Part shown: positions 2,961-16,856 of the stretch, piece by piece
Position numbering within the stretch: the stretch's first letter is position 1
Layout of the letters: each line of letters opens with the position of its first letter
From: JBDRGX01 sp043817485 [NCBI: bacterium]
GTDB taxonomy: Bacteria > JBDRGX01
Assembly: GCA_043817485.1 (NCBI GenBank)
Contig: JBDRGX010000051.1
Coordinates: 1 to 16,856 of the forward strand
Direction of reading: 5' to 3'
DNA: 16,856 nt
Program-made: the position numbers and the translations under genes
The notes under the pieces: model-generated
Database searches by the model: none
Told to the model about the DNA's origin: nothing
The model's input: the letters and a program-made list of their open reading frames with translations, nothing else

Positions 2961-3695
2961 CACAAAAGCCTGCAAAAAGACCGCGACCAAGCAGATATTA
3001 GCGATATTATTAAACAACTGCATGAAGTTATTGATGAGTTAATTATTGTTACGCCAGACAAAGCCAAAGAACCCAATAAGCTTTATGATATTAGCAAGAT
3101 TGATTTTAACCGATTGCGGGCAGAATTTGAACACATTAGAACCAAAAATACCATTGTGCAGAGCCTTAAAAGCGTGATTGAGAAAAAACTGGAACGGCTT
3201 ATCCAAAAAAATCCGCTCCGGACAGATTTTCAAGAACATTATGAAAAGATAATTGATGAGTATAATAAAGAAAAAGACCGCCAAAATATTGAAGCTATCT
3301 TTGAGATGTTATTGAAATTTGTGCAGGAGTTGGACGAGGAAGAAAGCCGAGCAGTGCGAGAAGGGCTGGATGAGGAGACTCTGGCTATTTATGACCTACT
3401 GGCAAAACCAGATTTGAAACCCCAGGAAATCCAAAAGATAAAGAAGGTAGCCAAAGAACTACTGGAAAGACTGAAGGGAAAATTAAAGGATATGTATAAA
3501 TGGCAAGACAAAGAGCCTACAAGAGATGATGTGAAGGCTTCAATACACCATTTTCTGTGGGATGATGCAATCGGCTTGCCTCTTGGGTTTTATACAGATA
3601 ATGAAGTTGAAAAGAAAACTGATGCTGTTTTTTATCATGTCTATCGGGCATATCCAACAGTGCCATCGCCGTATTATGCAAGCGTGGGTAATTGA
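2961..3695 (+). pseudogene. hsdR: C-terminal remnant of type I restriction enzyme R subunit (HsdR)
   Basis: The frame from 2961 to the stop at 3693-3695 encodes about 244 residues matching only the far C-terminus of type I restriction endonuclease R subunits: ADISDIIKQLHEVIDELI, then YDISKIDFNRLRAEF, KNPLRTDF.EHYEKIIDEYN, EEESRAVREGLDEETLAIYDLL, and a closing FYTDNEVEKKTDAVFYHVYRAY. A complete HsdR is roughly 800-1100 residues and carries an N-terminal nuclease domain and a two-lobed helicase motor; both are missing here. A stop at 2958-2960 closes the frame immediately upstream. There is no convincing start or ribosome site; the first in-frame candidate is a TTG at 3114. I read this as the stump of a deleted restriction gene. 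The C-terminal domain normally contacts the methyltransferase core, so an independently expressed fragment cannot be fully excluded. Confidence 0.75.
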
Positions 3696-8074: not shown

Positions 8075-9019
8075 ATGTTAAAAAATAAAATTATTATTTT
8101 GGTTTTAATTTGTTTATTTATTTCTATTCCAATTAAAGCTCAATTTGTTGGAATGTTTGCTGATATTGGTTATGGAGCAAGACCAGTAGGAATGGGAGGA
8201 GCATTTGTTGCTGTTAGTGATGATGTAAATGCTTTAGTTTGGAATAATGCAGGGCTTGCTTATGCTCCAAAAGAAATAATTTTTATGTGTACTGCTCAAT
8301 TTAATATTGTTCCTTATACTTTTATGGCTTGTTCTGTTCCTTGTGCTAATAAAAAAAATATGGGTATGGGATTTGGAATGATTACATCTGGTGATTCACT
8401 TTTAAGAGAAAGTACTTTACTTATTGGATGTGGGTTAGAAATGAATGATTTTTTATCCAAATTATTTATGAAAAAAATATCAACAAATTTTTTGATAAGC
8501 AATGGTTTTACTTTTAAATTACGATTTATTTCAGTTGGTCAAAATTTAGAAAAACATGTAGATAAATCTACTGGTAGTGGTTTGGGATTTGGCACAGATT
8601 GGGGATTTTTAATTAAATTTAATGAAAAATTTAATATGGGTTTAAATTTAAAAGATTTATTTTCTCCAATATTTTGTAATTCTAATATGCAAGGTTCATA
8701 TACAGAATTTATATTACCAACTAACAGTATTGGGTTAAAATATATGTTTAAAAAAAATGTATTAGTATCTATAGAATTAGATAATTTTCGTTGGGTAAAA
8801 TTGGGTAATGAATTAAATTTTAATAAATATTTTGTTTTAAGAAGTGGTTTTATTTTATTGCCTCAAGGGAAAAGCTTTAGGCAAATATATAGTATTGGTG
8901 GTGGAATAAAATTTCCTTTGAAATCAGAAAAAAACATGTATTCTCAATTAGATGTATCTTATAATATTGATGGAGTTTTGCCAAATACTTCTAAATTTTC
9001 TTTAAATTTAATATTTTAA
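8075..9019 (+). CDS. PorV/PorQ-like outer-membrane beta-barrel protein
   Basis: A 314-residue predicted outer-membrane protein. Residues 1-22 form a signal peptide (hydrophobic core, cleavage probably after IKA). The mature N-terminus contains GARPVGMGGAFVAVSDD (34-50) followed by VNALVWNNAGLA, the hallmark opening of the PorV/PorQ/UPF0164 group, relatives of FadL-type barrels. The rest is alternating hydrophobic and polar beta-strand sequence with turns, ending in FSLNLIF with a terminal Phe as in many barrels. In Bacteroidota, PorV carries type IX substrates from the translocon to the surface-attachment machinery, so three nearby proteins with type-IX-like tails make that role attractive; this is inference, since the family also includes general porin-like proteins. 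It is monocistronic, with its own strong promoter, and is the only + strand gene in the AT-rich part. Confidence 0.75.
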   Translation: MLKNKIIILVLICLFISIPIKAQFVGMFADIGYGARPVGMGGAFVAVSDDVNALVWNNAGLAYAPKEIIFMCTAQFNIVPYTFMACSVPCANKKNMGMGFGMITSGDSLLRESTLLIGCGLEMNDFLSKLFMKKISTNFLISNGFTFKLRFISVGQNLEKHVDKSTGSGLGFGTDWGFLIKFNEKFNMGLNLKDLFSPIFCNSNMQGSYTEFILPTNSIGLKYMFKKNVLVSIELDNFRWVKLGNELNFNKYFVLRSGFILLPQGKSFRQIYSIGGGIKFPLKSEKNMYSQLDVSYNIDGVLPNTSKFSLNLIF

Positions 9020-9268: not shown

Positions 9269-10996
9269 TTACTTCAACATCAGCATTTTTTTACAATTTA
9301 GTGATTTGTTGTTCACAATTGTTTCATAAAAATACATTCCCGATGAAACTTCTTTTCCTAAATTATCTCTTCCATCCCAATATACTGAATTATTTGTATT
9401 ATTTGTAATTACTTCTCTTACTACTTGTCCTAATATATTGTATATTTTTATTTTAACATTTTGTGATTTGTTATTTGCTATTTCTAATGGGATATAACAT
9501 TCGGGATTAAATGGATTTGGATAACTTTTATTTATGGACATAGTAGTATTAGAAAAAATAGAATTGGCAGTATTTATTTTTACACTAAAAGTCATTGTAT
9601 TTCCAGAAGTAATTAAATTGTAAATAGAAATATTTGATATATTTCCTTTATTACTATGCGTATTTGGAATAGTAGTAGCATTAAAAGATATTTCTGGATT
9701 ACGAACAGAATTAGGTGGTGCTGGATTAGGATTAGAAAAAGCAGCAAAATCAGCATAAGGAAAAGAATAATTATTATTTGCAGTATTAAAATTAGGGTCA
9801 TGATTATAATTATAAGAATCTTCTATCCATATTCTATAATAAGGATTTTTTGGAAGTCCATTATTTCCACCATCTATTGGCATTGTTTCATCAACATGAG
9901 AAATAATAAGTCCAGAATCTGGCAATGTAGCATCATATTTTCCTCCCCAATTTTTAGTTCGGTTTTCAATTAAAAAATATTCTTTATTATTTGTATTTGG
10001 TATGATTATTTTATATAATCTATTATTTGTATTCAGTCCAGTGGCGTTTATAGAATAAGTTCCATTTGTAGTTATTGTTGTATAGGGAAGATCCAATGGA
10101 GTAGTGTTATGACTAGTAGGATCTGCATCTAAATCCATTTTTAAATAACCAGAAAGATGAGCAGGAAATTGTGATTGTCCTAAATAAGCTCCTAATGACA
10201 TTAAACACCACCAACCTGTAGGAAAAAAATCTGGATCATCATAATCATAAAGATCTGGTGCTCCTAAATCATGACAAAATTCATGACAAAAAGTTCCAAT
10301 AGAAAGAGCATCTTCATTATTGATTTTAAAATCAGGATCTTCAGCACAAATAACAGCAGAAACTATTTTTTTATTATCATATCTCCCAAACCCAAATAAT
10401 GCAGAAGTAGAAATACACACTGACCAAATATCGTTTGAATTACCAGTTCTGGCTTCATCATTCCCAGAATGAATAATAAAAACATGATCTACTACGCCAT
10501 CATTGTTTTTGTCATATTGACTAAAATCTACTTGTGAATTTATTGCATTTAAAGAATCTACTACTAAATTTGTAATTTTTTCATTTGATTCATCATTGTA
10601 TTCGCTAATGTTTTTAGGTAGTTTAACCCAGTTAATAGCCCCATTTAATATTCCCGGCAAGATTTCCATTTTTCCATTACTTATTTCATAAAAATAATTA
10701 TAAACACTTGGAATTAGTGAATCTTTAGAAAAGATATGTTTATTAAATAAACTGACATTTCTTAAATGCAATTTATCTTGAAATTCAACAAGAATTACTA
10801 AAACCTCTTCTTTTCCATTTTTTTGAGGAATAAAATTCAATCTTTGCATATCTGGATCTTTAAACTTTTTATAATTGCTATTAATGGACATTTTACCATT
10901 TGTATTTTTTTTAAATAATAAATTTGGATGAGGTGGAACAGAAAAACTAAAATTTGAAACTAAAAAAATAAAAATTAAACAAAAGATTTTAATCAT
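9269..10996 (-). CDS. Secreted M6-family zinc metalloprotease with C-terminal sorting domain
   Basis: A 575-residue secreted protease. A signal peptide occupies residues 1 to about 19. VLVILVEFQDK (65-75) opens the M6 catalytic domain; the zinc site is HEFCH (238-242) with GAPDLYD directly after, giving the HExxHxxGxxD pattern of immune-inhibitor-A-like peptidases. YDKNNDGVVDHVFIIHSG (161-178) looks like a calcium-binding loop, and EYFLIENR...GLIISHVDE is the usual continuation of this family. Residues 492-575 are a tail with YPNPFNP, IYNILGQVVREV, WDGRDNLGKEVSSGMYFYE and a basic end, as in type-IX sorting/FlgD-like domains. The start is the ATG at 10996-10994 with AAGGAA eight bases upstream. 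The tail is nearly the same as in two other genes of the window. Export to the cell surface or outside is expected; the substrate is unknown. Confidence 0.88.
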   Translation of the reverse strand: MIKIFCLIFIFLVSNFSFSVPPHPNLLFKKNTNGKMSINSNYKKFKDPDMQRLNFIPQKNGKEEVLVILVEFQDKLHLRNVSLFNKHIFSKDSLIPSVYNYFYEISNGKMEILPGILNGAINWVKLPKNISEYNDESNEKITNLVVDSLNAINSQVDFSQYDKNNDGVVDHVFIIHSGNDEARTGNSNDIWSVCISTSALFGFGRYDNKKIVSAVICAEDPDFKINNEDALSIGTFCHEFCHDLGAPDLYDYDDPDFFPTGWWCLMSLGAYLGQSQFPAHLSGYLKMDLDADPTSHNTTPLDLPYTTITTNGTYSINATGLNTNNRLYKIIIPNTNNKEYFLIENRTKNWGGKYDATLPDSGLIISHVDETMPIDGGNNGLPKNPYYRIWIEDSYNYNHDPNFNTANNNYSFPYADFAAFSNPNPAPPNSVRNPEISFNATTIPNTHSNKGNISNISIYNLITSGNTMTFSVKINTANSIFSNTTMSINKSYPNPFNPECYIPLEIANNKSQNVKIKIYNILGQVVREVITNNTNNSVYWDGRDNLGKEVSSGMYFYETIVNNKSLNCKKMLMLK

Positions 10997-11055
10997 AAAT
11001 ATATTTCCTTTATTTTAAAAAGTCAGTGAAAATGAAAATTTTTAAAATTCATTTT

Positions 11056-11083
11056 ATAATAAAGTTAATTAATTAATTTGCAA
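11056..11083 (-). promoter_or_regulatory. Candidate promoter of the metalloprotease gene
   Basis: On the - strand, TTGCAA (11083-11078) and TATTAT (11061-11056) are spaced by 16 bases, matching 4/6 and 5/6 of the sigma-70 boxes. They lie about 60 bases upstream of the metalloprotease ATG. In DNA this AT-rich such matches can arise by chance. Confidence 0.4.
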
Positions 11084-11125
11084 TCAAAATAATGACAAGG
11101 TGATAAGCAGCCGTAACAAAGGCAA

Positions 11126-11155
11126 CACAATTAGCGTTTGAATGCGACTTGGTAT
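11126..11155 (+). repeat. Dispersed intergenic repeat, copy A
   Basis: A 30-base element, CACAATTAGCGTTT then GAATGCGACTTGGTAT. It matches 27 of 30 positions of a copy in the opposite orientation at 12146-12175. It starts 30 bases, and ends 9 bases, from the 3' end of the 11164-12096 barrel gene, so the two copies bracket that gene. Confidence 0.65.
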
Positions 11156-11163
11156 AAAAAATA

Positions 11164-12096
11164 TTAAAAATTTCTTCCAATATTTAAAAAATAAATTTGT
11201 TTTAGTAAATTTTCTGATAAAATAATTTTAAGTCCTGGATCAATTACAAGTTTTGATCCTAAAATGTTTTTTAAAAAATATTGCCAAAAATTTTCAGTTT
11301 TTTCTATATAAATTTCTGGTTTATAACTTAAGCCCAAACAAACCCATTTAGAAGTTTTAGTTGCTTCACTTATTCTAACAGATATTTCATTAACAAAACA
11401 TAATTTTTTATTTTGGTACCAGTGAGTTTCTCCAAGATGAATTTCATGATAAATTTTTTTAGCAAAAATTTCTTCTCCTAATTCAACTAACACACCTATT
11501 GAAAAAAATTGATGGGAATTGAAAGTTACGCCTAAATCTAATTTTTGCTTTTCATTTATTGAAGATTTTATCTGCCAAAGTAAATTTGGATGAGCAAAAT
11601 TTTGATACAAACATTTAAAATTATAAGAATTTCCTTTTTTATCTAACATAGAATAAATTATTCCTAAATCTAAACTTGGAGAAAAAAGAATTTCTTTTTT
11701 TTGAGATGGATCACTAATTTTAACAAATTTCCATGAAATTCCAGCAAATAAATTAGGCAAAGTTTTTAATCCAAATGATGCTTTAAACATCTTTTCATTT
11801 TTAAAAACATTATTTTCATAAAATGTTTGTTCAGCATTTGCTAAACTAAAATTAGGATTTAAAAAATAAATTGAACTTCCATAAGATGCATTTTTTAAAT
11901 CAAAATCCAAAAAACCTCCAATAGAAATTTTATTTTCATCTAAATATCCTAATAATGCTGGATTAAAAATTATTCCCAATGTATCTATAGTTTTAAAATT
12001 AAAATTGAAATTTTCTATATCTTGTTCTTGAGAAGCAGAAAAACAAATACAATGAATAAAAATAAAACAAGAAAATAATATATATTTTAATTTCAT
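11164..12096 (-). CDS. Predicted outer-membrane beta-barrel protein
   Basis: A 310-residue protein with a signal peptide (residues 1 to about 20, cleavage near CFSA) and then FNPALLGYLDENKISIGGFLDF, which resembles the 'NPA' opening of PorV-like barrels although the full signature is absent. The remainder alternates hydrophobic and polar residues in strand-sized units with aromatic girdle residues and ends in Phe (IYFLNIGRNF), as expected of an outer-membrane barrel. I do not recognise a specific family. GGAGG lies 12 bases before the ATG, a long spacing, and no closer in-frame start is seen. The gene is bracketed by inverted copies of a 30-base repeat and sits between the metalloprotease gene and another predicted barrel gene, all on the - strand. 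A role in surface export is possible but not shown. Confidence 0.55.
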   Translation of the reverse strand: MKLKYILFSCFIFIHCICFSASQEQDIENFNFNFKTIDTLGIIFNPALLGYLDENKISIGGFLDFDLKNASYGSSIYFLNPNFSLANAEQTFYENNVFKNEKMFKASFGLKTLPNLFAGISWKFVKISDPSQKKEILFSPSLDLGIIYSMLDKKGNSYNFKCLYQNFAHPNLLWQIKSSINEKQKLDLGVTFNSHQFFSIGVLVELGEEIFAKKIYHEIHLGETHWYQNKKLCFVNEISVRISEATKTSKWVCLGLSYKPEIYIEKTENFWQYFLKNILGSKLVIDPGLKIILSENLLKQIYFLNIGRNF

Positions 12097-12145
12097 TAAA
12101 ATAAAAATCCTCCATATTAAAATAATAAAATTACTAATTTTTATA

Positions 12146-12175
12146 ATACCAAGTCGTATTTAAACGCTAACTGTG
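12146..12175 (-). repeat. Dispersed intergenic repeat, copy B (inverted)
   Basis: Read on the - strand it is CACAGTTAGCGTTT then AAATACGACTTGGTAT, differing from copy A at only three positions, all G/A changes. The conserved GGTAT ends of both copies point inward towards the barrel gene between them, the arrangement of terminal inverted repeats. It lies 50 bases upstream of that gene's start. Confidence 0.65.
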
Positions 12176-12231
12176 ACTTCTCCTGCGTATAATTTAATAT
12201 GCTTTTATCGTCCTTTCTTTGTGCTTTGTTA

Positions 12232-12963
12232 TTATTTTGAATTCAACTTAGTATAAGTTAATCCAATATGTCCATAAGTTTTTTGAATTCCACTATATCC
12301 GTTATTTATTCTAAATACAAAATTTGTACTTATTTGTGAAGTTAAATTATATTTAAGTCCAAAACTGAAAAAACTTGTATTTTTTAAATTTAGTTCTGTT
12401 GCCCAAGTAAAATTATTTTCTAAAATTATTTTCAAATTTTTTTGAAGATTACATTCTAATCCAAGTAGAATTCCCAAATTAAAAGGCATATGAATACCTA
12501 AATGCAATTTGCTATTTAAAAACCATGGTTTTTTATCACTAATAATTCCATATAAACCATAAGGAGAACATAATCCTAATGCAATACCACATTCTTCTTC
12601 TTGAATAAGGGAATATTTTAAAGATGGGAATAAAGGAACAATCATATTATTAGATGCTTTTTTAATATCTTGAGATTTAGTTTTATTTTGTATAAAATTA
12701 TCTTCATATAAAGGAGTGTTAGTAAGTCCTACTTCTAAATTAGAACTTGAAAAACCGAAATTAAAATTTAAAGAATAAGGATATAAATTCATATTTACAC
12801 CTTGAGCTGGTCTACTGAAATAACTAAAATTAAATTGTCCATTTTTTGTTGCAAAACCTGTAGGAATAAAATTTAATCCAGAAAATCCAAAATAAGTAGA
12901 TTGAGAAAAAGATATTTGAGATAGACAAAATAATATTATAAAAATCAAAACATTTTTTTTCAT
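12232..12963 (-). CDS. Predicted outer-membrane beta-barrel protein, YjbH-like N-terminus
   Basis: A 243-residue exported protein. A signal peptide spans residues 1 to about 20 (cleavage near ISFS/Q). The mature start, GFSGLNFIPTGFATKNGQFNF, recalls the 'GL.NIPTA....G' opening of YjbH/LbtU-type outer-membrane barrels, and the rest consists of strand-like stretches (LNFNFGFSSSNLEVGL, FFSFGLKYNLTSQIS, YGHIGLTYTKL). No catalytic residues are evident. The ATG at 12963-12961 has AAAGGA just upstream. The gap to the tyrS stop is 59 bases, so the gene may be read from the nuclease-tyrS transcript. Family assignment is weak; export and barrel nature are better supported than function. Confidence 0.5.
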   Translation of the reverse strand: MKKNVLIFIILFCLSQISFSQSTYFGFSGLNFIPTGFATKNGQFNFSYFSRPAQGVNMNLYPYSLNFNFGFSSSNLEVGLTNTPLYEDNFIQNKTKSQDIKKASNNMIVPLFPSLKYSLIQEEECGIALGLCSPYGLYGIISDKKPWFLNSKLHLGIHMPFNLGILLGLECNLQKNLKIILENNFTWATELNLKNTSFFSFGLKYNLTSQISTNFVFRINNGYSGIQKTYGHIGLTYTKLNSK

Positions 12964-13022
12964 TTTTTCCTTTCTTTATTAATATTATGATAAGAAGATT
13001 TTGCAGATTACTACGAAGTAAT

Positions 13023-14228
13023 TCATTTTTTAATTCTAACGAATTTTCTTTTGCCTACTTTTAAAATCATATCATTTTTAATTAAAATTTCTTCATTTAT
13101 ATTTGTAATATTTATTTTATCTACATCTACGGCTTTTTGTTCTATTAATCTTCGAGCTTCACTATTTGAATTTACTAAACCAGATATTATCAGAAGTTTT
13201 ATTATTCCAAGTTTTTCATCTTTTATTTCTATTTCTGGAATTTCATCGGGTATTTTTTTTTGAGAAAAAATTTTTTCAAATTCTTCATAAGATTTTTTTG
13301 CTTCAGTTTCATTATGATATATTTTAACTATTTCATAAGCAAGTTTTTTCTTTATTATCATAGGATGAAGAATATTGTTTTTCATTTTTTTTTCAAAATT
13401 TTCAATTTCGTCTGAAGAAAAAGTAGTTAGTAGTTTATAATATTTAAACATTAAATCATCAGGAATAGACATTGTTTTGCCAAAAATTTCTTTTGAAGAT
13501 TCATTGATACCGATGTAATTACCTAAACTTTTGCTCATTTTTTCTTTTCCATCAATTCCTTCTAAAAGAGGCAGAGTAATGGCTATTTGAGGAACTTGTC
13601 CATAATGTTTTTGAATTATTCTTCCAATTAATAAATTAAATCTTTGATCAGAGCCGCCAATTTCAACATCTGCTTTTACTTGCACAGAATCATATGCTTG
13701 AATAAGAGGATACATAAATTCGATTAAACTAATATCTTTATTTTGTTCATATCTTTTTCTAAAAGTACCATGTTCTAATATTTTGGCTAATGTAATTGCT
13801 GAAGAAAGTTTAATTATTTCAGCAAAATTCATTTTATTATACCATTGACTATTCAATAGTAATTGTGTTTTGCTTTCATCTAAAATTTGAAATATTTGTT
13901 CTTTATAAGTTTGGGCATTTTTTATGACTTGTTCTTGAGTTAAAAGCTTCCGTGTACTGGATTTTCCAGAAGGATCTCCAATTCTTCCCGTAAAATCTCC
14001 AATTATAAAAATAACTTCATGGCCTAAATTCTGAAATTGTTTTAATTTTCTAATTGGAACGGTATGTCCTAAATGAATATCTGGAACTGATGGATCTACA
14101 CCTAATTTTATTTTAAGAGGAGTATTTGTTTTTAAAGAATTTTGTAGTTTTTGTTTTAATTCTTCTTCTTCAATTATTTCTAATACACCTTTTTTAATTT
14201 CTTTTAATTGTTGTTCTATTTCTAACAA
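13023..14228 (-). CDS. tyrS: Tyrosyl-tRNA synthetase
   Basis: A 401-residue class I aminoacyl-tRNA synthetase that charges tRNA-Tyr with tyrosine in the cytoplasm. The ATP-binding HIGH motif is HLGH (52-55) in GVDPSVPDIHLGH; GDFTGRIGDPSGKSSTR follows, as in the TyrZ-type bacterial subgroup; the tyrosine pocket contains GGSDQRFN (191-198), and the second ATP motif is KMSKS (230-234). The C-terminal ~60 residues form an S4 RNA-binding domain (LLIISGLVNSNSEARRLIEQKAV). Length and motif order are complete. The start is a TTG at 14228-14226 with AAAGGAG six bases upstream. The gene follows a nuclease lipoprotein gene by 15 bases, so they share a transcript. No T-box leader is seen upstream of the pair. 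Confidence 0.96.
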   Translation of the reverse strand: MLEIEQQLKEIKKGVLEIIEEEELKQKLQNSLKTNTPLKIKLGVDPSVPDIHLGHTVPIRKLKQFQNLGHEVIFIIGDFTGRIGDPSGKSSTRKLLTQEQVIKNAQTYKEQIFQILDESKTQLLLNSQWYNKMNFAEIIKLSSAITLAKILEHGTFRKRYEQNKDISLIEFMYPLIQAYDSVQVKADVEIGGSDQRFNLLIGRIIQKHYGQVPQIAITLPLLEGIDGKEKMSKSLGNYIGINESSKEIFGKTMSIPDDLMFKYYKLLTTFSSDEIENFEKKMKNNILHPMIIKKKLAYEIVKIYHNETEAKKSYEEFEKIFSQKKIPDEIPEIEIKDEKLGIIKLLIISGLVNSNSEARRLIEQKAVDVDKINITNINEEILIKNDMILKVGKRKFVRIKK

Positions 14229-14243
14229 AATTTACTCCTTTAT

Positions 14244-14738
14244 TTAATGTTTTTTTTGATGTTTTTTTCTCCAAAGATAAGGAGATTCAAAAGTTGGAGA
14301 AGAAGTTTCTTTAGATGCTTTTAAAATTTGATTTGCAAATTTTTCAAAACCATTATTTCCATAAAAAGAAATTGTTTCATAAGCTAATTTTGCTTTAATA
14401 AGTTTTACTGCTAAAAGTTCATCATCAATTAAAATATGAGCAAGTAATCGGTTATATTTATCTTTTGTAGAAGGAAAATATTTTATAGTTTTAGCTTTTA
14501 ATATTGCATTTTTAGTAAATTCTGCTGCAATTTCTCCCATTTCTTGATTTTTAAATATTCCATGTTCTTTATGAATTATTTCTGGAGCATCAATTCCTAA
14601 AATTCTTATAGATATATTTTTATAAAAAATTGTATCTCCATCATCAAATTTTATAAATTTTTTATTCATGTTTATGGAGTTAGAATTACATCCAATAATT
14701 ATTATTAAAAATAAAAATAAAAATATTTTTTGTTTCAA
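14244..14738 (-). CDS. Staphylococcal-nuclease-like (thermonuclease) lipoprotein
   Basis: A 164-residue exported nuclease. The N-terminus is a lipoprotein signal with lipobox IIGC (Cys17), so the mature protein should be lipid-anchored in the envelope. The SNase fold is complete: DDGDTI (32-37) and D50 supply the calcium ligands, R45 and E53 in IRILGIDAPE, and R97 in DKYNRLLAH match the catalytic Arg/Glu/Arg of the family. The mature domain is about the usual size. The start is a TTG at 14738-14736 with AAAGGA upstream. It lies 15 bases before tyrS in the same direction, an unusual pairing. Likely roles are nutrient nucleic-acid degradation or defence against incoming DNA; neither is shown. 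Its hydrolysed nucleic acid could feed the purine-salvage enzymes in the left part, which is only a suggestion. Confidence 0.88.
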   Translation of the reverse strand: MKQKIFLFLFLIIIIGCNSNSINMNKKFIKFDDGDTIFYKNISIRILGIDAPEIIHKEHGIFKNQEMGEIAAEFTKNAILKAKTIKYFPSTKDKYNRLLAHILIDDELLAVKLIKAKLAYETISFYGNNGFEKFANQILKASKETSSPTFESPYLWRKKHQKKH

Positions 14739-14760
14739 AATTAGTCCTTTTTATTATTAA

Positions 14761-14797
14761 AAATTTAGGGCAAGAAATAAAATCTCGCCCTAAATTT
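14761..14797 (-). terminator. Intrinsic terminator between the propeller gene and the nuclease gene
   Basis: AAATTTAGGGC (14761-14771) and GCCCTAAATTT (14787-14797) pair perfectly over 11 bases, and the stem continues inward past one mismatch with AGA/TCT around AATAAAA. On the - strand it follows the stop of the propeller gene by about 60 bases and is followed by a short T-run (TTTTTAATAAT as read through the end of the arm). Both sides are T-rich, so it may work in both directions. Confidence 0.7.
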
Positions 14798-14859
14798 CTT
14801 TTCAACTTTTTACAATTTTGAGTTTTATTGTAAAACAACAAAATCTAAAATATTAGTAT

Positions 14860-16359
14860 TTATTTCAACATCAACATTTTTTTACAATTTTGTGTTTTGT
14901 TGTTTATAATTGTTTCATAAAAATACATTCCTGAACTTACTTCTTTTCCTAAATTATCTCTTCCATCCCAATATACACTACTATTTGCATTGTTTGTAAT
15001 TACTTCTCTGACTACTTGGCCAAGTATATTATATATCTTTATTTTTACATTTAGATTTTGGGATTTGTTATTTGACATTTCTATTGGTATATAACATTCT
15101 GGATTAAATGGATTTGGATAAGATGAAATTTTATTTTTATAAAATATATTTTTATCTATATTTGTTTCTGCTTTATAAGAATAATAAATTACATTAAATT
15201 GATCATCATAAGTATTTTCTGCACAAACAATATCAACTTTTTCATCAATATTTTTTGCACTACTTGGACAATAATTACTTTTATCTGAACTATTAGAAAT
15301 ATTTATAATTTCTCCCCATTCTCCAGACATTTTTTTTTGACGACAATATATTTCTGTATCATTACTTGTATCAGTACTTCCAGCAAACCAAGTACAATAA
15401 ATGTTATTATTTTTATCATAACTTAAACTAGGACAAAAAGAACGAAAATTAGGAATTTTTCCAATTATGGTATATTTTTGATCCCAAATTCCATTTACGC
15501 ATTTTTTATATAAAATTCTTTCTTCATATGTTTCTTTTATAAAATCACCCCAAGCTAAGTGAATAACATCATTATTATCAACAACAATACTAGGTTCACA
15601 TGACCAATTAGAAGTATTACTGAAGTTAAGAATAATTGGTTCCCAAATGTCATTTTTAAAATTATATTTTCCCATAGAAATATTTACTCCATATTCTCCA
15701 TTATCTCCGTTATTGTATTCACCCCATGCTACATAAAGATTATTTTGAGAATCTACATCAACATCTACCATTACAGATTTTTGATTTAATGAATTATTAA
15801 TTCTTGTTATTTCTGACCAATTTTCAGTTATTGCATTATATTTGCGATAAAAAATATCATAATGTATTAAACCATAAAATTTATCTTCCCAAAACACATA
15901 AACATTATCATTTTTATCAATTACAATAGAAGGAAAGCGTGATTTATCATCTGGAGTATTGCTAATATTTAAAATATTGCTATCCCAAATTCCATTTACA
16001 CATTTTTTATAGTAAATTTCTTTTTCATTAACATCCCAAACTAAATGTAAATTATTATTACTATCAATATTTAAAGCACAATGTTGTAAATTACTGCCAC
16101 TTGCTATTATAATTGGAGTAATAAATTTTGTATCTTGTTTTGAATTAGATTTAGTATATATAATATTATTTTTATCTGAAAAAACAATATGAATAATTCC
16201 ATTTGTATCTTTTACTATTTTTCTTCCATTTGGTTGTTCTGTAGCTAAATTATTAGTATTAGCAGTTCCAACAATTGTAGAAGTTATAGCATTTACAAAT
16301 GAAAAAGTAAAAATATAAATATAAATAAAAACAAAACAACTTAAAATTATTTTTTTCAT
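14860..16359 (-). CDS. Secreted beta-propeller-like protein with C-terminal sorting domain
   Basis: A 499-residue exported protein. A signal peptide spans residues 1 to about 24 (FSFVNA). Residues ~35-400 contain about six to seven repeats of a sialidase/BNR-like blade pattern: 'PSIV.D..N..Y..W.D' followed by 'I.Y......W....NISN', for example SIVIDKNDNVYVFWEDK and SIVVDNNDVIHLAWGDF. No catalytic Arg triad or aspartate box of a true sialidase is clear, so binding or structure is likelier than enzymatic activity. Residues 414-499 are the YPNPFNPECYIP...GQVVREV...SGMYFYE...KKMLMLK tail shared with the metalloprotease and the gene at the window end. AGGG lies four bases before the ATG. A hairpin after the stop (14761-14797) probably ends the transcript. 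Secretion to the surface is expected; the ligand is unknown. Confidence 0.75.
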   Translation of the reverse strand: MKKIILSCFVFIYIYIFTFSFVNAITSTIVGTANTNNLATEQPNGRKIVKDTNGIIHIVFSDKNNIIYTKSNSKQDTKFITPIIIASGSNLQHCALNIDSNNNLHLVWDVNEKEIYYKKCVNGIWDSNILNISNTPDDKSRFPSIVIDKNDNVYVFWEDKFYGLIHYDIFYRKYNAITENWSEITRINNSLNQKSVMVDVDVDSQNNLYVAWGEYNNGDNGEYGVNISMGKYNFKNDIWEPIILNFSNTSNWSCEPSIVVDNNDVIHLAWGDFIKETYEERILYKKCVNGIWDQKYTIIGKIPNFRSFCPSLSYDKNNNIYCTWFAGSTDTSNDTEIYCRQKKMSGEWGEIINISNSSDKSNYCPSSAKNIDEKVDIVCAENTYDDQFNVIYYSYKAETNIDKNIFYKNKISSYPNPFNPECYIPIEMSNNKSQNLNVKIKIYNILGQVVREVITNNANSSVYWDGRDNLGKEVSSGMYFYETIINNKTQNCKKMLMLK

Positions 16360-16430
16360 TTTTCCCTATTTTTTTTAAAAAAAGTATTAAAATAATTACT
16401 TTGATAAATGCAATTACCAATACTATAATA

Positions 16431-16466
16431 TTTCATAGAGACGCAATTTTTTGCGTCTCTATGAAA
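16431..16466. repeat. Perfect 16-bp-stem hairpin with GAGACGC core
   Basis: TTTCATAGAGACGCAA (16431-16446) and TTGCGTCTCTATGAAA (16451-16466) are perfect reverse complements around a TTTT loop. It lies seven bases after the stop codon of the truncated tailed gene and about 70 bases upstream of the propeller gene. It could terminate transcription, but neither side has a clear long T-run. The GAGACGC...GCGTCTC core resembles small dispersed palindromic elements of bacterial intergenic DNA. Confidence 0.7.
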
Positions 16467-16473
16467 ATTGTTT

Positions 16474-16856
16474 TTATTTCAACATCAGCATTTTTTTACA
16501 ATTTTGTGTTTTGTTGTTTACAATTGTTTCATAAAAGTACATTCCTGAACTTACTTCTTTTCCTAAATTATCTCTTCCATCCCAATATATTGAATTATTT
16601 GCATTATTTGTCATTACTTCTCTTACTACCTGTCCAAGTATGTTATATATTTTGATTTTGATGTTTGAGATTAAAGATTTATTATTTGTTTTTTCTATTG
16701 GTATATAACATTCTGGATTAAATGGATTTGGATAATTAGCTATATTCATTTTTGAATTATTTGTCATTTTATCAATAGAATTTGTGTTAAGAGATTCTCC
16801 CATTTGTTTTATTGTATTAAACCATTCTTGAGGATGTTGTTTCCATTGACCACGAG
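16474..16856 (-). CDS. C-terminal part of a protein with the shared sorting domain (runs off the window)
   Basis: The frame stays open to the last base of the window, so the visible 126 codons are only the 3' end of a longer gene; the internal ATG at 16803 is not a credible start. The first part reads RGQWKQHPQEWFNTIKQ, from a domain I do not recognise, then a polar Asn/Ser-rich linker. The last 86 residues are the sorting-type tail: YPNPFNPECYIPIE, IKIKIYNILGQVVREV, WDGRDNLGKEVSSGMYFYE and NCKKMLMLK. This tail is almost identical at the DNA level to that of the propeller gene 120 bases downstream. The protein is expected to be exported, but its signal peptide and main domain lie outside the window. 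Confidence 0.75.
   Translation of the reverse strand, partial: RGQWKQHPQEWFNTIKQMGESLNTNSIDKMTNNSKMNIANYPNPFNPECYIPIEKTNNKSLISNIKIKIYNILGQVVREVMTNNANNSIYWDGRDNLGKEVSSGMYFYETIVNNKTQNCKKMLMLK

What the first reader, a model, noticed from the sequence alone, without database searches (positions are those of the whole stretch)
9269..16856. Three nearly identical C-terminal sorting cassettes on unrelated secreted proteins
The metalloprotease, the propeller protein and the truncated gene share an ~85-residue tail that is almost the same in protein and strikingly similar in DNA, while the bodies are unrelated. Similarity covers the stop codon region in all three (TTTCAACATCA or CTTCAACATCA on the + strand). 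DNA identity appears highest between the two neighbours at 14860 and 16474. This suggests recent duplication or gene conversion of a tail cassette, a way of recruiting new proteins to one export route. Each tail also has two fixed cysteines (PECYIP and NCKK) that could form a disulfide or an attachment point, unlike the common type-IX tails I know.
Basis: partly seen in the sequence, partly recalled or inferred. Interest (0 to 1): 0.7.

Follow-up and report, generated by a model that had tools for sequence, protein, structure and literature searches.

The report
Uniform type IX sorting tails
Three unrelated secreted proteins of an unidentified AT-rich bacterium end in nearly the same known kind of export tag (a type IX secretion sorting domain); the sharing looks old rather than recent, has a published parallel, and its one odd feature is a pair of cysteines where the related tails found have mostly threonine.

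Summary
Three minus-strand genes end in tails 85-89% identical in protein and 86-87% in DNA; similarity starts about PNPFNP and ends at the stop codon; the bodies are unrelated. [quoted passage not shown] 'Recent duplication or gene conversion' is not supported: NG86 dS is 0.46-0.51 with dN near 0.1, other estimators give dS 0.93-1.88, and the neighbouring pair is not significantly closer. They look like paralogues of intermediate age held alike by selection, though some older conversion is not excluded. Such uniformity is unusual (12 control pairs: median 41%, maximum 73%) but has a precedent, the KLIKK proteases of Tannerella forsythia (PMC4404884, passages). The new detail is the cysteine pair, at sites that are Thr in 37 of 37 and 22 of 36 aligned relatives; the exact motif was found nowhere else searched. 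Whether the cysteines bond was not measurable, and no whole genome was held.

The parts
9269..10996 (-). M6-family metalloprotease with HExxH (HEFCH, residue 238) and C-terminal sorting tail
   Evidence: PF05547 73.5 bits and TIGR03296 162.6 bits; HExxH; signal-peptide-like N-terminus judged by eye
9269..9538 (-). Tail 1 (type A T9SS sorting domain); Cys codons at 9497-9499 and 9293-9295
   Evidence: Por_Secre_tail 31.3 bits (cut-off 27), TIGR04183 32.7 (cut-off 23); alignment
14860..16359 (-). Propeller-like (BNR/PDIAV-like, both below cut-off) protein with sorting tail
   Evidence: signal-peptide-like N-terminus judged by eye
14860..15132 (-). Tail 2; Cys codons at 15094-15096 and 14884-14886
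   Evidence: Por_Secre_tail 31.8, TIGR04183 33.0
16474..16854 (-). 3' end of a third gene, 5' part beyond the window, with sorting tail
   Evidence: open frame running off the window
16474..16746 (-). Tail 3; Cys codons at 16708-16710 and 16498-16500
   Evidence: Por_Secre_tail 31.8, TIGR04183 35.2
8075..9019 (+). PorV/PorQ-family outer-membrane protein, candidate partner (shuttle) of the tails; convergent with the M6 gene, 249 bp between their stop codons
   Evidence: NF033709 71.3 bits, E 1e-19, below its cut-off of 90; no Pfam match; distance

Best explanation
[quoted passage not shown] Inferred route: the proteins cross the inner membrane by Sec, the tail folds as an Ig-like sandwich in the periplasm and is recognised by the outer-membrane translocon and a PorV-type shuttle, and the tail is then removed or used for surface attachment. 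The tails descend from one ancestral domain that came to sit on unrelated proteins some time ago, and purifying selection for recognition by the same machinery keeps the protein sequence nearly fixed while synonymous sites drift. The two cysteines are a change relative to the related tails found, at positions where those have mostly Thr; they may be paired. Shown: family membership by profile, predicted fold, divergence pattern, cysteine positions. Inferred: secretion route, shuttle use, any role of the cysteines.
For: Por_Secre_tail and TIGR04183 above curated cut-offs in 3 of 3 tails. AlphaFold model from 40 sequences, pLDDT 84.6; best second-look match PorU, Z 9.9, rmsd 2.8, 89 aligned; mirolase sorting domain Z 7.6, rmsd 2.2, 71 aligned. 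A profile of the three tails also picks PorU residues 1061-1152 in the PDB, weakly (E 0.18). NG86 dN 0.087-0.105 against dS 0.46-0.51. Similarity limited to the domain. PorV-family gene alongside. Precedents: KLIKK proteases with 'virtually identical CTDs' (PMC4404884, passages); type A tails rely on PorV (PMC12618676, abstract and passages).
Against: None of the window ORFs scanned is a T9SS translocon, sortase or motor gene, and no genome could be searched. The PorV-like protein is below its cut-off. In one search the PorU range spans 860-1157, so a few aligned residues may lie outside its tail, and the Z-scores below PorU's are tied with unrelated Ig/FN3 folds. Part of the synonymous similarity could be gene conversion (52-nt run; codon identity above background).
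Confidence: 0.82

Rival explanations
1. Recent or ongoing gene conversion, or recent duplication of a tail cassette, homogenises the local copies.
For: Codon identity above chance in all three pairs (P 0.0004 or less; within-amino-acid permutation P 0.011-0.042); 52-nt identical run between the two neighbours, P 0.031 uncorrected; tails more alike than any of 12 within-record control pairs, and unlike the one other uniform record, whose codons show no excess identity; dS lower than in the RhuM pair.
Against: NG86 dS about 0.5, other estimators near or above 1; neighbours not significantly closer than the distant pair; identity runs of the other two pairs P about 0.16; no similarity in the flanks.
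Confidence: 0.15
2. The tails carry an intradomain disulfide that locks the sorting domain, in place of the Thr side chains.
For: Both cysteines in 3 of 3 tails, at sites that are Thr in 37 of 37 and 22 of 36 relatives; both lie in predicted strands (residues 13 and 83; strands 13-16 and 79-88).
Against: With three such close tails conservation proves little; no distance could be measured; the facing of the second cysteine changes with the register chosen against mirolase (my reading of PMC11285876 section 2.5, and of the ranges). The word disulfide does not occur in PMC11285876, and its one occurrence in PMC4804311 concerns the domain before the tail.
Confidence: 0.3
3. The tails are FlgD-like or generic Ig/FN3 modules with no sorting role.
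For: FlgD_ig matches just below cut-off (26.8, 23.1, 26.6 against 27); FlgD is the best PDB match by profile (E 0.026) and by Foldseek, and second.
Against: T9SS profiles pass cut-offs, position is strictly C-terminal, PNPFNP and the terminal Lys strand are present; PorU is the best match by the second-look aligner with both models.
Confidence: 0.04

Closest known systems
Type A T9SS sorting domain (TIGR04183 / PF18962 Por_Secre_tail)
   Same: Profile scores above cut-offs, C-terminal place, PNPFNP start, terminal lysine, Ig-like predicted fold
   Different: Cys in place of the Thr that is constant after PNPFNP in 37 of 37 aligned relatives, and of the common Thr in the last strand (22 of 36); tails more alike among themselves than the controls
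KLIKK proteases of Tannerella forsythia (PMC4404884, abstract and passages seen)
   Same: Nearly identical C-terminal sorting domains on unrelated secreted catalytic domains; genes grouped in clusters
   Different: Here the end is KMLMLK, not KLIKK; one protease, one propeller-like protein and one unknown. The paper calls its domains virtually identical and perhaps acquired relatively recently; here synonymous sites are well diverged
ETWIP-type tails of IMG/VR record IMGVR_UViG_2740892559
   Same: PNPFNPE(T/C)(W/Y)IP start; three tails in one record 72-73% identical
   Different: Thr and Trp instead of Cys and Tyr; codon identity no higher than permuted (P 0.20-0.57)

Membership tests
T9SS type A sorting domain | Score above curated cut-off of TIGR04183 and PF18962 | tested here: met
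   3 of 3 tails
T9SS type A sorting domain | Located at the extreme C-terminus, ending in a strand with conserved Lys | tested here: met
   KKMLMLK then stop in 3 of 3; Lys in the last strand described in PMC11285876 section 2.2
T9SS type A sorting domain | Ig-like antiparallel beta-sandwich (seven strands) | tested here: met
   Prediction only, and six strands of 3 or more residues instead of seven: pLDDT 84.6; PorU Z 9.9, mirolase CTD Z 7.6
T9SS type A sorting domain | Sec signal peptide on the carrier | tested here: inconclusive
   Two carriers have signal-like N-termini by eye; no predictor run; the third is cut off
T9SS type A sorting domain | T9SS core and PorV genes in the same genome | tested here: inconclusive
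   PorV-family gene in window below cut-off; no genome held
T9SS type A sorting domain | Secretion depends on the tail; tail processed | not testable with these tools
   needs an experiment
T9SS type B sorting domain (TIGR04131) | Score above cut-off 35 | tested here: not met
   20.3 bits for tail 3; not listed at E 0.01 for the other two
KLIKK-type uniform tails | Nearly identical tails on unrelated secreted proteins | tested here: met
KLIKK-type uniform tails | Terminal KLIKK | tested here: not met
   terminal KMLMLK
FlgD Ig-like domain (PF13860) | Score above cut-off 27 | tested here: not met
   26.8, 23.1, 26.6

The most novel reading that the evidence does not exclude
This lineage uses a disulfide-stapled version of the type IX sorting domain: both positions that are commonly Thr were changed to Cys and fixed across its cargo, giving a private, redox-dependent sorting tag that only this organism's machinery accepts.
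Probability: 0.12. Interest if true: 0.55.

Novelty: new variant of a known kind. Interest (0 to 1): 0.3.

Why it matters
It gives another apparent case, beside the KLIKK proteases, of one bacterium putting near-identical type IX tags on unrelated proteins, and suggests that the likeness can be kept by selection on protein rather than by recent copying. If the cysteine pair proves to be a disulfide, it would be a natural test of how folded and how rigid the tag must be for export.

Tried and rejected
Rejected: a remnant of a fourth tail downstream of the propeller gene (14807-14831, seen); the local shuffle gave P 0.003, but windows elsewhere reach equal or higher scores (23.0 against up to 29.5 among 622 window-strand tests), so I take it as chance. 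Rejected: similarity of the 3' flanks as part of the cassette. Type B and FlgD readings fail their cut-offs.

Led nowhere: relatives in genome contigs (patterns GMYFYET and NCKKMLM, 74 pattern matches, none confirmed, so more divergent tails there were not sampled; 0 exact PNPFNPECYIP, with no positive control of that pattern type in that collection, which also lacks contigs under 3 kb). Viral contigs: 43 relatives, but 0 with PNPFNPECYIP, 0 with a version loosened at the Phe and Tyr codons, 0 with PNPFNPxCx followed by a codon starting RT; the Thr/Trp version used as a positive control found 3 stretches with 4 matches in 2 records. Phages: no match; plasmids: two weak Rhodothermus matches. 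The source organism could not be named; a resemblance to tails of candidate phyla came from memory only, one name was looked up and nothing was tested. Cys-Cys distance could not be measured because no model coordinates were in the Python box. Text searches for motif letters found 0 papers; that for tail disulfides listed 4, of which I opened PMC4804311 (passages and one section); that for conversion or shuffling of tails listed 3, of which I opened PMC5266723 (passages), which in those passages treats other surface proteins.

Limits of counts: 37 of the 43 viral relatives went into alignment A3; left out were L007 and L015 (near copies), L019 (long insertion) and L038, L042, L043 (partial); all six read Thr at the first site in the listing. 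Relatives were recruited by the patterns [SN]YPNPFN and ECYIP[IL]E, so tails without these are under-sampled. The within-record control took all 12 of 26 records that had two or more matches (28 of the 43 loci were given as handles) and gave 12 pairs from 8 records; in 4 records, and for some tails of others, my regular expression found fewer tails than one search lists. YN00 failed on one tail pair and on the RhuM pair.

Full report
What is there. Three minus-strand genes end in a shared tail: an M6-family metalloprotease (9269-10996), a propeller-like protein (14860-16359) and the 3' end of a gene cut by the window edge (16474-16854). The tails are 85-89% identical in protein, and 229/267, 229/267 and 237/273 identical in DNA over gap-free positions. 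A repeat finder recovers them as a three-copy family of 295 nt. The two complete bodies match different families: M6 above cut-off; BNR_2 and PDIAV_lipo below cut-off. Similarity fades just before PNPFNP and ends with the TAA; at most 10 of the first 20 downstream bases match.

What it is. Pfam Por_Secre_tail (31.3, 31.8, 31.8 bits; cut-off 27) and NCBIfam TIGR04183, T9SS type A sorting domain (32.7, 33.0, 35.2; cut-off 23) match all three; type B and FlgD profiles stay below their cut-offs. A model built from 40 sequences (pLDDT 84.6) matches PorU best in the second-look alignment (Z 9.9, rmsd 2.8, 89 aligned; the range runs 860-1157, so a few residues may fall outside PorU's own tail) and the mirolase sorting domain at Z 7.6. 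The family call therefore rests on the profiles, with the fold as support. A PorV/PorQ-family gene (below cut-off, E 1e-19) lies convergent to the protease, 249 bp between stop codons. In Flavobacterium johnsoniae type A tails are all recognised by PorV (PMC12618676, abstract and passages).

How old is the sharing. NG86 gives dS 0.455, 0.510, 0.488 and dN 0.105, 0.097, 0.087 (M6-propeller, M6-truncated, propeller-truncated); YN00 (two pairs) and ML (three) give dS 0.93-1.88. At identical residues the same codon is used in 56 of 74, 55 of 71 and 59 of 73 cases against 50.6, 50.6 and 53.3 expected when codons are permuted within amino acids (P 0.020, 0.042, 0.011); against background codon usage of the window the excess is stronger (P 0.0004 or less, which also counts the stop codon). 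As a yardstick, the tandem RhuM paralogues in the window have NG86 dS 1.8 and 108 of 193 codons the same (86.3 expected). So the tails keep a trace of common descent but are not recent copies. Pair differences are not significant (Fisher P 0.55-0.85) and only the neighbour pair has a long identity run (52 nt, P 0.031 uncorrected; the others P about 0.16), so some past conversion between neighbours is not excluded.

Is such likeness unusual? Yes, moderately. Twelve of 26 IMG/VR records searched had two or more tails; from 8 of them my script recovered at least two, giving 12 within-record pairs with a median identity of 41% and a maximum of 73%. The 73% record shows that uniformity within a record occurs elsewhere, there with synonymous codons fully scrambled (P 0.20-0.57), i.e. 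protein constraint without DNA homogenisation; the window's tails retain more codon identity than that. In print, the KLIKK proteases of Tannerella forsythia carry 'virtually identical CTDs' on serine and metalloproteases, called unusual and possibly of common origin, acquired relatively recently (PMC4404884, abstract and passages). P. [quoted passage not shown]

The cysteines. In the alignment with 37 relatives, the first Cys falls on a column that is Thr in 37 of 37, the second on one that is Thr in 22 of 36; none of these has Cys at either. No other exact PNPFNPECYIP was found in genome contigs (no positive control there) or viral contigs, nor the looser Cys pattern in viral contigs, while the Thr/Trp version was found there. 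Both cysteines lie in predicted strands. Whether they face each other is open: in mirolase V717 and Y784 are listed as core residues (PMC11285876, section 2.5), but the end-strand register that would align the second Cys with Y784 differs by one from the aligner's range. The M6 and propeller bodies also hold 6 and 10 cysteines, so Cys is not rare in these proteins. A disulfide is plausible and untested.

Verdict.

Noticed in passing
43-1128 and 1115-2191: Two overlapping tandem RhuM-family genes, 202 of 346 aligned residues identical.
   Followed up: partly
3114-3695: C-terminal fragment of a type I restriction R subunit (PF11867 positions 158-302 of 329) in an ORF of 193 aa.
   Followed up: no
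11164-12096 and 12232-12963: Two proteins between the M6 gene and TyrRS, signal-bearing and outer-membrane-like by eye, with no Pfam or NCBIfam match at E 0.01.
   Followed up: no
14765-14840: AT-rich inverted repeats (by eye) downstream of the propeller gene; a 25-nt stretch resembles the tail end but at chance level.
   Followed up: yes
L002, L004, L089, L091 (IMGVR_UViG_2740892559_000001): A 78.7-kb contig classed as viral carries three ETWIP-type sorting tails 72-73% alike, so it may be bacterial DNA.
   Followed up: partly
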